Program-made: the position numbers and the translations under genes
Shown: piece by piece, positions 9,822 through 13,156 of the stretch
Layout: each line of letters begins with the position of its first letter
Numbering within the stretch: the first letter of the stretch is position 1
Notes under the pieces: generated by a model
Database searches by the model: none
Told to the model about the DNA's origin: nothing
What the model saw: only the letters and a program-made list of their open reading frames with translations
Origin: an uncultured Bacteroidales bacterium
GTDB taxonomy: Bacteria; Bacteroidota; Bacteroidia; Bacteroidales; Paludibacteraceae
Assembly: GCA_946404495.1 (NCBI GenBank)
Contig: CAMJDT010000002.1
Location: 25,753 to 89,752, forward strand
DNA length: 64,000 bases
Reading direction: 5' to 3'

Positions 9822-11234
9822 GTGAGTTATTCGTTTCGTACATATTATCCCTATTACCGGCGCAACCTCAAGTTGGCCTTTCCGGTGATGCTGACGCAGT
9901 TCGGAGCTGCGTTGGTCGGTCTTGCCGACTCCATTATGGTAGGTCACTACAGCACGGCGGACTTGGCGGCGGTCAGTTTCTCCAATGCCTTGTTCTTTAC
10001 CGTCATGGTCTTTTCGATGGGGGCGCTTATGGGTATAACGCCGCTGGTCGGTAACGTCCACGGACGTCTGGAACAGCTGCTCGCCGACGGCACTACGGAC
10101 TCCGAGATTGCCCACAAGCATGAGCAGATTACCTCCTATTTCATCAACGGTCTGGTCTTCACGGTCCTCATGTGCATCTTCTCCTTGCTCATTCTCGCTC
10201 CTTGCATCGGCTGCCTCGATGCCTTCGGTCAGGAACCAGCCGTGGTTCGTTGCGCGCGACCCTACTACATCCTCATCGTCCTATCCATCGTGCCCTTTCT
10301 GCTTTTTACTTTCAGTAAACAGTTCCTCGAGGGGCTCGGCAACACCACCGTTGCGATGCTGATCACCATTGGTTGCAACCTGCTCAATATCTTCCTCAAC
10401 TGGCTCTTCATCTTCGGTCACTGGGGCTTTCCCGCGCTGGGAGCGGAGGGAGCAGGCTGGGCGTCGCTCATCGCCCGCTGCCTGATGCCGGTGTGTTTCT
10501 TCGTCGCAATGCTTTGCAAGGCCGATTGGCGCCGCTACCTCACGTCGATTCGCAGCTATCTCATCACCCGTCGCCAAGTGCAATACCTCATCACCCTTGG
10601 CGTCCCGATCGGTTTGCAGTCTTTCGCCGAAGCCTTCCTCTTCACGGCTTCGTTTGTTATCATCGGTTGGATCAGCAAGGAGTCGCTTGCGGCGCACCAT
10701 ATCGCCAACCAAATGGCCGATCTGACCTTCATGCTGGCGCTTGGCATCGGTTCGGCTACCACGATCCGCGTCTCCCACCAGCTCGGCAAGGGCGACCTCC
10801 AAGCCGTGCGCCTGGCGAGTCACGCGTCGGTGCATCTCTGCCTTCTGATGAATACCATCGGCGCGGCCATTATGATCTTCGGACGCAACCTGATTCCCTA
10901 TATCTTCACCGATGATCCCGAAGTTATTCCGATCGCTTCGACGCTGCTCATCATTGCCGGCACGTTCCAGTACGCCGACGGACTCCAATGCATCGGAGCC
11001 GCGATGCTGCGTGGCATTCAGGATGTGCGCGTGCCGATGCAGATAGCTTTGTTCGCGTATATCGGCGTTGCGCTCCCGTTAGGTCTCGTGCTCACCTTCC
11101 CCTTGGGTCTCGGCGCCAAAGGTATGTGGATATCCTTCGTCATCGCCCTCGCCATCCCCGCCGTCCTCTTCCACATCCGCTTCCATCGCCAACTCACCCG
11201 CCTCCATCGCCAACTCCCCCGCTTCCATCGCTAA
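9822..11234 (+). CDS. MATE family multidrug/cation antiporter
   Basis: A membrane exporter of about 470 residues of the MATE family, which moves cationic drugs or metabolites out against Na+ or H+. The first helix carries FPVMLTQFGAALVGLADSIMVGHY, typical of MatE domains, and there are about 12 segments with two MatE repeats. No ATG precedes the first helix downstream of the promoter, so I choose the GTG at 9822. The C-terminus is odd: its last residues (RFHRQLTRLHRQLPRFHR) are encoded by a 21-bp tandem repeat that contains the stop codon and continues beyond it. Substrate unknown. Confidence 0.88.
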   Translation: MSYSFRTYYPYYRRNLKLAFPVMLTQFGAALVGLADSIMVGHYSTADLAAVSFSNALFFTVMVFSMGALMGITPLVGNVHGRLEQLLADGTTDSEIAHKHEQITSYFINGLVFTVLMCIFSLLILAPCIGCLDAFGQEPAVVRCARPYYILIVLSIVPFLLFTFSKQFLEGLGNTTVAMLITIGCNLLNIFLNWLFIFGHWGFPALGAEGAGWASLIARCLMPVCFFVAMLCKADWRRYLTSIRSYLITRRQVQYLITLGVPIGLQSFAEAFLFTASFVIIGWISKESLAAHHIANQMADLTFMLALGIGSATTIRVSHQLGKGDLQAVRLASHASVHLCLLMNTIGAAIMIFGRNLIPYIFTDDPEVIPIASTLLIIAGTFQYADGLQCIGAAMLRGIQDVRVPMQIALFAYIGVALPLGLVLTFPLGLGAKGMWISFVIALAIPAVLFHIRFHRQLTRLHRQLPRFHR

Positions 11235-11270
11235 CTCACCCGCCTCCATCGCCAACTCCCCCGCCTCTCG
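11177..11270. repeat. 21-bp tandem repeat across the MATE stop codon
   Basis: Four copies of a 21-bp unit (form ccgcYtccatcgcYaactcMc) and a partial fifth. The stop codon at 11232-11234 is inside copy three, where a C to T change turns cgccaa into cgctaa. The repeat therefore encodes the tail and continues into the 3' flank. Confidence 0.93.
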
Positions 11271-11301
11271 TAACATTTTTTGTGCGATTGTTGCAAAAAT
11301 A

Positions 11302-11333
11302 TTTGCATATATCAAAAAAATGTTGTATCTTTG
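11302..11333 (+). promoter_or_regulatory. Promoter of the RAYT-like transposase (predicted leaderless)
   Basis: TTTG at 11302-11305 (extended TTTGCATATATCA), a 20-bp spacer, TATCTTTG at 11326-11333. The ATG at 11338 begins five bases after the -7 element, where transcription is expected to start. Confidence 0.78.
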
Positions 11334-11337
11334 CAGC

Positions 11338-12705
11338 ATGAATACGAGCGATGATATTTTCGCGGGACGTTTGTCCCGCGCAGTAAACGAAGAGAATTCG
11401 CTTTCGTCCCCTTCTTCGGACAATCGTCCGAAGCCCTCTTCGTCCCCTTCTTCGGACAAACGTCCGAAGCCCGTTTCGTCCCCTTCTCGGAATAACCATT
11501 CCGAGCCCGTTTCGTCCCCTTCTCGGAATAATCATTCCGAGCCTTCTTCGTCCCCTTCTTCGGACAAACGTCCGAAGCCCTCTTACTATGCTCCCATCAA
11601 GCGCAATACCCTTCGCCGTAAGGAAGGCCATGATTACTACTCACCCTCTATCTATCTTATTACCGTCTCTACTTTCGATCATCAGCGCCTCTTAGGTACC
11701 TTAGTGGGCGATACTGCGGATGTGGCTAAGATTGTGCCTACAACGCTCGGAAATAGTGTTATTAATCTCTTTAAAGGCATCGAAGCTTATGTGCAGGATA
11801 AGACAGGCTGCCATGTGCAGATATTACAGTACCAACTCATGCCCGATCATTTTCATGGTATCATTCATATTAAAGATCGGCTCCCTTCCTCTCTCCCCTT
11901 AGGACGTATCATCGGTCGTTGGAAAGGAGCTTGCTCGCGTGTATTTTGGGCTTCCTCCTCTCCTTCTTCGTCCCCTTCGTCGCCCTCTGCTTTGTCTTCG
12001 TCCCCTTCTTCGGACAAACGTCCGAAGCCCGTTTCGTCCCCTTCTTCGTCCCCTGCTTTGTCTTCGTCCCCTTCTCGGAATAATCATTCCGAGCCTTCTT
12101 CGTCCCCTTCTTCGGACAAACGTCCGAAGCTCCCTCCTCTCTTCTCGGATGGCTTCAATGATCGCGTCCTTAATCGTCAGGGACAATTGCAGCATTGGAT
12201 TACCTATCTTCGTAATAATCCCCGCCGCCTTTGGATTAAGTACCATTTCCCGGATAGATATCGTAAGAAACACGAGTTCGCGGCAGGTAAGAACCGCTAT
12301 CCCTACACAGCGATGGGCGAGTCATTTCTGGTAACTTACCCGGAGAGGGTACAGGTGCGTTGCCATCGTAATTTAAGCGATGCCGAGATACAAGCCGAGG
12401 TGGCCCGTTACCTGGACTTGGCACGCAGTGGGGTAGTGCTCGTTTCACCTTTTATCTCGCCTGGCGAGAAAGCCGTCTATGAAGCTTGTTACGCGGAGCA
12501 TTTAAAGATGATTCGTATCATCAATAGAGGCATCGACGGACAATTCAAGTTCCCCTCAGGACGTGATCTGGAGGGCTGTTATGCGGGCTTTCTGCTTGTC
12601 TTAGCACCTTATATGGAAGGCGCTCCGGAGACTGCTGACGTGCGTATCTCCCGCGCCCAATGTCTCAATTTGAATGCCTTTGCCGAGGACCTCGCTACAA
12701 TCTAA
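11338..12705 (+). CDS. RAYT-like HUH transposase with internal palindrome arrays
   Basis: A 455-residue protein of the Y1 (IS200/REP-associated tyrosine) transposase superfamily, enzymes that cut single-stranded DNA at hairpins through a tyrosine. The HUH motif is MPDHFHG (His171, His173) after the IYLITVSTFDHQR strand. The likely catalytic tyrosine is Tyr290 in WITYLRNNP. A C-terminal domain (about 310-455; VVLVSPFISPGEKAVYEA) resembles a DprA/LOG-like Rossmann fold. Two Ser/Pro/Lys-rich inserts, about residues 22-82 and 205-264, are encoded by 36-bp palindrome units and do not belong to the family core; the second splits VFW from LFSDGFNDR. The start at 11338 is chosen because earlier ATGs lie in the promoter. 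Confidence 0.8.
   Translation: MNTSDDIFAGRLSRAVNEENSLSSPSSDNRPKPSSSPSSDKRPKPVSSPSRNNHSEPVSSPSRNNHSEPSSSPSSDKRPKPSYYAPIKRNTLRRKEGHDYYSPSIYLITVSTFDHQRLLGTLVGDTADVAKIVPTTLGNSVINLFKGIEAYVQDKTGCHVQILQYQLMPDHFHGIIHIKDRLPSSLPLGRIIGRWKGACSRVFWASSSPSSSPSSPSALSSSPSSDKRPKPVSSPSSSPALSSSPSRNNHSEPSSSPSSDKRPKLPPLFSDGFNDRVLNRQGQLQHWITYLRNNPRRLWIKYHFPDRYRKKHEFAAGKNRYPYTAMGESFLVTYPERVQVRCHRNLSDAEIQAEVARYLDLARSGVVLVSPFISPGEKAVYEACYAEHLKMIRIINRGIDGQFKFPSGRDLEGCYAGFLLVLAPYMEGAPETADVRISRAQCLNLNAFAEDLATI
11404..11589 (+). repeat. REP-like palindrome array, N-terminal coding part
   Basis: Five 20-bp palindromes begin at 11414, 11450, 11486, 11522 and 11558, exactly 36 bp apart. Numbers 1, 2 and 5 are CTTCGGACAAACGTCCGAAG or a near copy; 3 and 4 are CTCGGAATAATCATTCCGAG or a near copy. 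Each has 8-bp arms and a 4-nt loop. The 16-nt linkers are close to CCCTCTTCGTCCCCTT. Because 36 is a multiple of three, the array encodes 12-residue repeats of the SSPSSDKRPKP and SSPSRNNHSEP types. Confidence 0.95.
11949..12132 (+). repeat. REP-like palindrome array inside the transposase core
   Basis: Pyrimidine-rich linkers carry palindromes at 12008-12027, 12074-12093 and 12110-12129, of the same two types as the N-terminal array. The segment encodes about 60 Ser/Pro-rich residues between the HUH region and the tyrosine helix and keeps the frame open. Confidence 0.93.
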
Positions 12706-12882
12706 TCTCCTTCGTCCCCTTCTCCTTCTAATCATTCCGAAGCCCTCTTCGTCCCCTTCTTCCTTCGTCCCCTTCTCGTTCTAATCATTCCGAGCCCTCT
12801 TCGTCCTCTTCTTCGGACAAACGTCCGAAGCCCTCTTCGTCCCCTTCTTTCTTCGTCCCCTTCTCGTTCTAATCATTCCGAG
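12706..12882 (+). repeat. REP-like palindromes in the 3' flank of the transposase gene
   Basis: The array continues past the stop codon. One perfect palindrome lies at 12811-12830. Three decayed copies, near 12727-12742, 12774-12794 and 12863-12882, keep the right arm (ATTCCGAG or ATTCCGAAG) while the left arm is changed (CTCGTTCT in two of them). The linkers are of the CTTCGTCCCCTT kind. These may also end the transcript. Confidence 0.88.
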
Positions 12883-13156
12883 TTTGATTTCGCCTGTTTT
12901 TTGACAAAAAGTCCCGCTAATACAGATTATTCTTACCAAATCTACCATTTTTCTCCCCAAATATTTGCATATCTCAAAAAAAAGCAGTACTTTTGCACCG
13001 TCATTTAGCGGAAGCCCCCGACAATCAACCGACGGTCACCCGACGGTCAAGACCAATGACGGCACTCTGGCAGCCCAAAAATGACCCGATTTTTTAGTAT
13101 TAAAATTACTATATTATATATTATATATATATAATATACTTTAAACCCTCAATTTT
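12883..13156 (+). promoter_or_regulatory. Promoter and long structured leader of the 13157 gene
   Basis: No gene is seen here. The promoter is TTTG (12964-12967, extended TTTGCATATCTCA), 20 bp, then TACTTTTG (12988-12995), giving a leader of about 155 nt. Its first bases (CCGTCATT, 12998-13005) can pair with AATGACGG at 13055-13062. Between them are two copies of CCGACGGTCA (13029 and 13040). An AT-only hairpin (13110-13120 with 13128-13138, 11-bp arms) stands 18 nt before the ATG. The role of the leader is unknown. Confidence 0.7.

What the first reader, a model, noticed from the sequence alone, without database searches (positions are those of the whole stretch)
11338..12882. Transposase gene built around its own REP-like palindrome arrays
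A RAYT-like HUH transposase (HUH at His171/His173, likely Tyr290) has two blocks of palindromes inside its coding sequence and a third in its 3' flank. Two hairpin types alternate (CTTCGGACAAACGTCCGAAG and CTCGGAATAATCATTCCGAG). In the first block they are exactly 36 bp apart, so they encode 12-residue Ser/Pro-rich repeats and keep the frame. The second block splits the transposase core between the HUH region and the tyrosine helix. RAYTs are known to act on REP hairpins outside their gene. Here the likely substrates are part of the ORF, so the gene may be enzyme, substrate and repeat source at once, or a repeat that has learned to insert in frame.
Basis: partly seen in the sequence, partly recalled or inferred. 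Interest (0 to 1): 0.86.

Follow-up and report, generated by a model that had tools for sequence, protein, structure and literature searches.

The report
Transposase gene carrying its own targets
A bacterial transposase gene carries, in frame inside its own coding sequence, the same tagged DNA hairpin that lies just downstream of it, a hairpin the enzyme is predicted to recognise; most relatives examined carry other hairpins at the same spot, and the hairpin of one related group also sits in frame inside unrelated genes.

Summary
The 455-aa ORF (11338-12705) is a REP-transposase-like HUH gene. Nine perfect hairpins (8-bp stem, 4-nt loop) lie inside it, six near the start and three between HUH and Tyr290; one more lies just after it.

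It is a family trait. Of 96 distinct homologous loci, 71 have a hairpin at the HUH-Tyr junction. Stems differ between lineages but resemble those flanking the same gene (0 of 5000 permutations as high). The hairpins share a tag, YGTYNNSTK; the GTAG tag of classical REPs is not enriched.

In related Prevotella, 25 of 27 further copies of one such hairpin lie inside unrelated genes, in frame. In the window's own genome two paralogous genes differ by in-frame hairpin arrays.

The core idea is in print: Quentin et al. 2018 report in-frame REPs between HuH and Y in TnpA_REP subclass 2.4. Motifs, length and tag here do not fit that subclass, so I call it a new variant of a known kind. Cleavage and mobility are inferred. 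Against active spread: the type-1 hairpin occurs nowhere else in its (87% complete) genome.

The parts
11302..11333 (+). Promoter-like sequence TTTG...TATCTTTG ending 4 nt before the ATG (Bacteroidetes -33/-7 type; the consensus is recalled)
   Evidence: pattern match; a similar 39-nt stretch recurs at 12959-12997
11338..12705 (+). RAYT-like HUH transposase ORF, 455 aa
   Evidence: weak NF047646 and PF01797 matches below their cut-offs
11361..11389 (-). Inverted unit: tag CGTTTACTG and hairpin CGCGGGACAAACGTCCCGCG on the minus strand, inside the ORF
11405..11433 (+). Unit 1, type 1 variant (tag CGTCCCCTT, hairpin CTTCGGACAATCGTCCGAAG)
11441..11469 (+). Unit 2, type 1
11477..11505 (+). Unit 3, type 2 variant (CTCGGAATAACCATTCCGAG)
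11513..11541 (+). Unit 4, type 2 (CTCGGAATAATCATTCCGAG)
11549..11577 (+). Unit 5, type 1, just before the conserved core (YYAPIKRN)
11848..11856 (+). HUH motif His171-Phe-His173
   Evidence: both His invariant in 42 sequences
11950..12138 (+). MID stretch between the HUH half and the Tyr half; 60 residues longer than in the homologue without insert (L031)
11999..12027 (+). MID unit, type 1
12065..12093 (+). MID unit, type 2
12101..12129 (+). MID unit, type 1
12205..12207 (+). Predicted catalytic Tyr290
   Evidence: invariant in 42 sequences
12319..12702 (+). C-terminal domain of about 130 aa, no Pfam family
   Evidence: conserved in 24 homologues; no consistent Pfam or PDB match
12725..12742 (+). 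Degenerate hairpin after the stop codon
12766..12794 (+). Degenerate type 2 unit in the 3' flank
   Evidence: score 5 of 8
12802..12830 (+). Perfect type 1 unit in the 3' flank (tag CGTCCTCTT)
12854..12882 (+). Degenerate type 2 unit in the 3' flank
   Evidence: score 5 of 8

Best explanation
This is a REP-transposase-type gene that carries tagged hairpins in frame inside its coding sequence and just after it, and its enzyme would likely recognise and spread these hairpins as single-stranded DNA. Shown: the layout is hairpins, HUH half, hairpins, Tyr half, hairpins; each unit is a YGTYNNSTK tag plus a hairpin; the junction between the halves carries hairpins in 71 of 96 loci; stems change between lineages and tend to resemble the flanking ones of the same gene. 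Inferred: the HUH-Tyr enzyme cuts and rejoins tagged hairpins; new copies land most often at its own locus; only copies that keep the frame and fall in tolerant loops (N-terminus, HUH-Tyr linker, C-terminus) survive; when enzyme specificity shifts, inside and flanking copies change together; copies in other genes persist when they too keep the frame. The 36-bp tandem growth of the first block may come from ordinary recombination rather than from the enzyme.
For: HUH and Tyr invariant in 42 homologues. MID hairpins: perfect stems of 8 or more in 38 of 90 inserts, against 65 of 4411 control windows of the same ORFs and 117 of 5400 codon-resampled inserts. Tagged units: 37 in MID, 41 N-side, 20 C-side, 9 in the Tyr half, 0 in the HUH half, 7 in 490 kb elsewhere, in 96 loci (a palindrome with tags on both sides can count twice). 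YGTY exactly 9 nt before 36 of 73 MID hairpins, other offsets 1 to 17. MID stems match the flanks of their own locus at 0.774, permuted 0.577, 0 of 5000 as high. In-frame copies outside the transposase: 25 of 27 in Prevotella, and arrays that differ between two paralogues in the own genome.
Against: Type 1 occurs nowhere else in the own genome within 3 mismatches and as one near-exact copy in 60 other genomes of the genus searched, so no spread population is seen. 25 of 96 loci have no MID hairpin by my criteria. In 6 of 23 loci MID resembles its own flanks no better than those of other loci on average (L026, L045, L048, L052, L054, L076); against the nearest relative the own flanks are better in 12, equal in 7, worse in 4. 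The permutation test ignores relatedness. Only 42 of 90 inserts beat codon resampling at p <= 0.05 one by one, and the longest string shared by MID and flanks beat all controls in 29 of 90. Prevotella copies are not enriched in genes over chance (P = 0.73). Curated family cut-offs are not reached. No activity was tested and no structure could be predicted.
Confidence: 0.6

Rival explanations
1. Passive debris: REPs landed once in tolerated loops and have since been kept alike by recombination between neighbouring copies; the inside copies have no present role and the enzyme may be inactive on them.
For: The first block is a perfect 36-bp tandem; near-identical homologues differ in repeat number, 4 to 7 units in P0014-P0019, P0021, P0022 and P0028; some lineages have weak or no MID hairpins or a decayed copy (L151).
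Against: The trait is spread over deep branches of the tree with many different stems; tag and hairpin are kept together.
Confidence: 0.22
2. The inside hairpins are regulatory: the transposase would bind them in its own mRNA or gene and limit its own expression.
For: MID hairpins in most loci at one fixed junction and stems that tend to follow the flanking ones; REPs and their transposase are coupled in known systems (PMC6006769, passages).
Against: Some lineages lack the insert and keep flanking units (L011, L012, L070); nothing here measures expression.
Confidence: 0.12
3. The hairpins are a by-product of a selected Ser/Pro-rich linker peptide and biased codons.
For: The window's insert is Ser/Pro-rich at protein level.
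Against: Other lineages encode unrelated peptides (LTHGAPNEE, SVAVLQQQT, NGGNNAAKW); one Prevotella transposase reads the same hairpin in two frames; codon resampling gives stems of 8 or more in only 2.2%.
Confidence: 0.03

Closest known systems
TnpA_REP subclass 2.4 (Quentin et al. 2018, PMC6006769; section 13 and passages seen)
   Same: In-frame REPs inside the transposase gene, generally between HuH and Y, plus flanking REPs; known from Bacteroidetes and Cyanobacteria.
   Different: There NH[IFV]H, WQ, YIxNNP, 194 aa and a GT[AG]G tag; here DHFH, Phe where the W would be, YLRNNP, 455 aa with an extra C-terminal domain, and YGTYNNSTK. Here the copies also lie at the N-terminus, and in a related Prevotella group in unrelated genes.
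CGTC-tagged palindromes (Di Nocera et al. 2013, PMC3733652; passages seen)
   Same: 8-bp stem, 4-nt loop, CGTC or TGTC near the hairpin, copies inside genes in some species, Bacteroidetes among the hosts.
   Different: There CGTC is the unpaired end of the repeat, the stem mostly starts with AT, and no transposase gene was found flanked by them; here the tag is 5 nt from the stem, the stem starts with CT, and a transposase carries the units.
Rickettsia palindromic elements (as described in PMC10969869; passages seen)
   Same: Palindromes inserted in frame in unrelated protein genes.
   Different: About 150 bp there, about 30-36 bp here; here a transposase gene carries the same units.
Classical RAYT/REP pairs (Nunvar et al. 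2010, PMC2817692; passages seen)
   Same: Transposase gene flanked by hairpin repeats in opposite orientations.
   Different: GT(A/G)G head, extragenic repeats in high copy there; other tag, in-frame copies and few genomic copies here.

Membership tests
RAYT / TnpA_REP (HUH-Y1 transposase) | HUH motif and catalytic Tyr in the core | tested here: met
   H171, H173, Y290 invariant in 42 sequences
RAYT / TnpA_REP (HUH-Y1 transposase) | Match over curated family cut-offs | tested here: not met
   NF047646 26.2 of 80 bits, PF01797 17.4 of 23 bits
RAYT / TnpA_REP (HUH-Y1 transposase) | Gene flanked by hairpin repeats in opposite orientation | tested here: met
   Minus-strand unit at 11361 and plus-strand unit at 12811; but the 5' ones lie inside the ORF
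RAYT / TnpA_REP (HUH-Y1 transposase) | GT[AG]G tetranucleotide at the hairpin foot | tested here: not met
   At most 3 of 73 MID hairpins at any offset scanned; YGTY at -9 in 36 of 73
RAYT / TnpA_REP (HUH-Y1 transposase) | Cleaves and rejoins its REPs | not testable with these tools
   Needs purified enzyme
TnpA_REP subclass 2.4 | In-frame REP-like insertions between HuH and Y | tested here: met
   Three units in the window gene; 71 of 96 loci with a MID hairpin
TnpA_REP subclass 2.4 | Motifs NH[IFV]H, WQ, YIxNNP and length about 194 aa | tested here: not met
   DHFH, Phe269 at the W position (by eye against L033), YLRNNP, 455 aa
CGTC-tagged REPs | CGTC at the end, directly at an 8-9 bp stem that starts with AT | tested here: not met
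   Tag 5 nt from the stem; stems CTTCGGAC and CTCGGAAT
CGTC-tagged REPs | 8-bp stem and 4-nt loop | tested here: met
REPs as repetitive extragenic palindromes | Many extragenic copies in the genome | tested here: not met
   Type 1 only at this gene within 3 mismatches; type 2 has three perfect variants elsewhere
Rickettsia-type in-frame palindromes | In-frame copies in unrelated protein genes | tested here: met
   For related hairpins, not the window's type 1: 25 of 27 Prevotella copies and two own-genome paralogues
Rickettsia-type in-frame palindromes | Element of about 150 bp | tested here: not met
   Units of about 29-36 bp

The most novel reading that the evidence does not exclude
This uncharted transposase clade is the missing engine for coding palindromes: it spreads short YGTY-tagged hairpins that land in frame inside proteins, its own included, so that enzyme, substrate and protein linker are one evolving unit. 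It would supply a dedicated transposase of the kind that CGTC-tagged and Rickettsia-type in-frame palindromes have lacked, and its internal copies would be a built-in record of its changing specificity.
Probability: 0.3. Interest if true: 0.82.

Novelty: new variant of a known kind. Interest (0 to 1): 0.6.

Why it matters
How small palindromes enter coding sequences without wrecking them, and which enzyme moves them, is open for Rickettsia-type elements and CGTC-tagged REPs. Here a transposase and its likely hairpins share one gene, with different hairpins at the same junction in many related genomes. That gives matched enzyme-substrate pairs for binding and cleavage tests and a natural record of how specificity changes.

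Tried and rejected
Hairpins by chance or codon bias: rejected as a general account. Units selected to be free of stops in all frames: not supported; mean open frames 3.95-4.42 of 6 against 4.48-4.54 in palindrome-preserving shuffles. Preference of the Prevotella copies for genes: not supported, P = 0.73. C-terminal domain as DprA-like: a lead by eye; the own-genome DprA aligned in the expected register but with hhalign probability 1%; PDB profile and Pfam gave nothing convincing. Viral origin: no relative confirmed in viral contigs. Solved structures of the whole protein: none by sequence.

Faulty steps: region labels were wrong ('coreC' took everything left over) and its output was cut; one search replaces it. 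The 21-nt pattern was mis-designed and its zero is ignored. In one search the motif search placed only 4 of 10 loci for the ABC gene; the flavodiiron result rests on 10 of 10.

Dropped before counts: 112 loci (L007-L118) were read; 96 remained after leaving out those in which the script found no ORF with both motifs and those with an identical core segment. In one search, 29 loci had MID and flank units; 23 were kept after removing cores at least 95% identical.

Full report
What is there. The ORF at 11338-12705 encodes 455 aa. It scores as a REP-associated tyrosine transposase, but below curated cut-offs (NF047646 26.2 of 80 bits; PF01797 17.4 of 23 bits). His171, His173 and Tyr290 are invariant in a 42-sequence alignment. 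Inside the ORF are nine perfect 20-nt hairpins (8-bp stem, 4-nt loop): one inverted unit at 11361, five direct units 36 bp apart at 11414-11577, and three at 12008, 12074 and 12110, between the HUH and Tyr halves. One perfect copy (12811) and degenerate copies follow the stop codon. Of eleven tagged hairpins found in the 64-kb window, ten are these; the eleventh, elsewhere, is a weaker match. Units of both types and the first block fold stably as single-stranded DNA.

A family trait, not a one-off. Homologues were found in 27 of 61 genomes searched, own included; 505 proteins reached E <= 0.001 among the 7984 candidates scored, of which 120 are listed; and 80 named loci were kept, by their titles largely rumen or gut Bacteroidales. 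One homologue, L031, has only 59 residues from HUH to Tyr; all 119 of the 120 listed proteins in which the script found both motifs have at least 10 more. In 71 of 96 distinct loci the extra stretch (MID) holds a tagged unit or a perfect hairpin with a stem of 7 or more. Perfect stems of 8 or more occur in 38 of 90 inserts of at least 8 aa, against 65 of 4411 control windows in the same ORFs and 117 of 5400 codon-resampled inserts; one by one, 42 of 90 inserts beat resampling at p <= 0.05. A stricter scan for tagged 20-nt hairpins found 37 units in MID (22 loci), 41 on the N side (26 loci), 20 on the C side (14 loci), 9 in the Tyr half, none in the HUH half, and 7 in 490 kb elsewhere.

The tag. 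YGTY lies exactly 9 nt before the hairpin in 36 of 73 MID hairpins; the other offsets scanned give 1 to 17, and the GT[AG]G tag of classical REPs at most 3. In 132 distinct units selected only on YGTY and pairing, positions -3, -2 and -1 are C or G, T, and G or T in 126, 121 and 124. Hence YGTYNNSTK plus hairpin.

Inside and flanking hairpins go together. In 23 loci with less than 95% core identity, MID stems match the flanks of their own locus better (0.774) than permuted loci (0.577; 0 of 5000 as high); the permutation ignores relatedness. Against the nearest relative the own locus is better in 12, equal in 7, worse in 4; six loci (L026, L045, L048, L052, L054, L076) match their own flanks no better than those of other loci on average. 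The tree shows many different stems at one junction; L011, L012 and L070 have almost no insert but keep flanking units. Looser tests are weaker: the longest string shared by MID and flanks beat all controls in 29 of 90, and of 51 loci with a MID stem of 7 or more, 17 had a copy within 600 bp on either side.

In frame elsewhere. TGTTGCTGTANTACAGCAACA was found in 7 of 10 genomes searched. In five of the seven the RAYT carries it twice in frame, 604 bp apart, in MID and at the C-terminus, read in two different frames; in two only the MID copy was found. I fetched all 27 non-RAYT copies listed; 25 lie inside ORFs, read as SVAVLQQQT, SVCCCNTAT or LLLYYSNK depending on frame; L203 and L207 do not. 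By eye (no family search was run on them) the genes include proA, ileS, a flavodiiron protein and a GH97 glycosidase. Of ten flavodiiron orthologues aligned, two have the hairpin, one (L151) a decayed one, six are 24-30 nt shorter there, and L157 has another loop. Since 93% of these stretches is coding, location in genes is what chance predicts (P = 0.73): the point is that the copies do not avoid genes and keep the frame.

The own genome. Type-1 hairpins occur only at this gene within 3 mismatches. Type 2 has perfect-hairpin variants (3 mismatches) at C22 and twice at C26. These sit in two paralogous genes (BT4734-like_N/DUF3987 by the scan of one of them) whose in-frame hairpin arrays differ, including a 13-residue stretch present in one only. 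Units with a third stem and the same CGTCCCCTT tag lie at C11, C13 and C60. A second RAYT (C5) has TGGCGGCAATAATGCCGCCA twice in its MID; the same hairpin family recurs at 13 other sites within 1 mismatch, with no ORF over them longer than 184 aa. Among 60 other genomes searched in the genus, one (G015) has a near-exact type-1 unit, outside any convincing ORF.

Comparison with what is known. Quentin et al. 2018 (PMC6006769; section 13 and passages) report REPs inserted in frame within subclass 2.4 tnpA_REP genes, generally between HuH and Y. That is the core of this finding and it is in print. The present family fails that subclass's motifs, length and tag. L033, from another genus of the order, looks by its motifs (NHIH, WQ, YIINNP, 241 aa) like a 2.4 member with its own MID hairpin. 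Di Nocera et al. 2013 (PMC3733652; passages) describe CGTC-tagged palindromes, some inside genes, and found no transposase gene flanked by them. Rickettsia elements insert in frame (PMC10969869; passages). Nunvar et al. 2010 (PMC2817692; passages) define the classical pair. In searches I saw no report of this clade, its tag, or in-frame copies in Prevotella genes; the library lacks most subscription papers, and supplements were not read.

Reading. The best account is a REP transposase whose cognate hairpins are tolerated, and probably renewed, inside its own reading frame. The steps from enzyme to hairpin are inferred. A regulatory role for the inside copies, and passive debris homogenised by recombination, remain open; the tandem first block fits recombination well.

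Noticed in passing
L139 (G000:C22) and L140 (G000:C26): Two paralogous BT4734-like_N/DUF3987-type genes in the window's genome differ by in-frame hairpin arrays of several families, including one 13-residue stretch present in one only.
   Followed up: partly
L217 (G015:C6): A near-exact type-1 unit in another genome of the genus, in a cluster of other hairpins and outside any convincing ORF.
   Followed up: partly
L146 (G000:C5), L210-L215: A second, divergent RAYT in the own genome has its hairpin twice in frame in MID; 13 further genomic copies lie in paired arrays that look non-coding.
   Followed up: partly
12319-12702: C-terminal domain conserved across the clade with no Pfam family; a DprA-like look by eye was not confirmed.
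   Followed up: partly
11302-11338: Promoter-like -7 box lies only a few nt before the ATG, so the transcript may be almost leaderless; some homologues are predicted with the same promoter translated at their N-terminus.
   Followed up: no
11177-11281: A 21-bp direct repeat at the 3' end of the neighbouring MatE-type gene.
   Followed up: no
P0074, P0120: Two homologues of 587 and 620 aa also carry nucleotidyltransferase domains (PF00483, PF12804) and may be fusions.
   Followed up: no
L033 (G038:C13): A short RAYT with subclass-2.4-like motifs and a GGGCGAATTGCAATTCGCCC hairpin in its MID, with more copies nearby.
   Followed up: no
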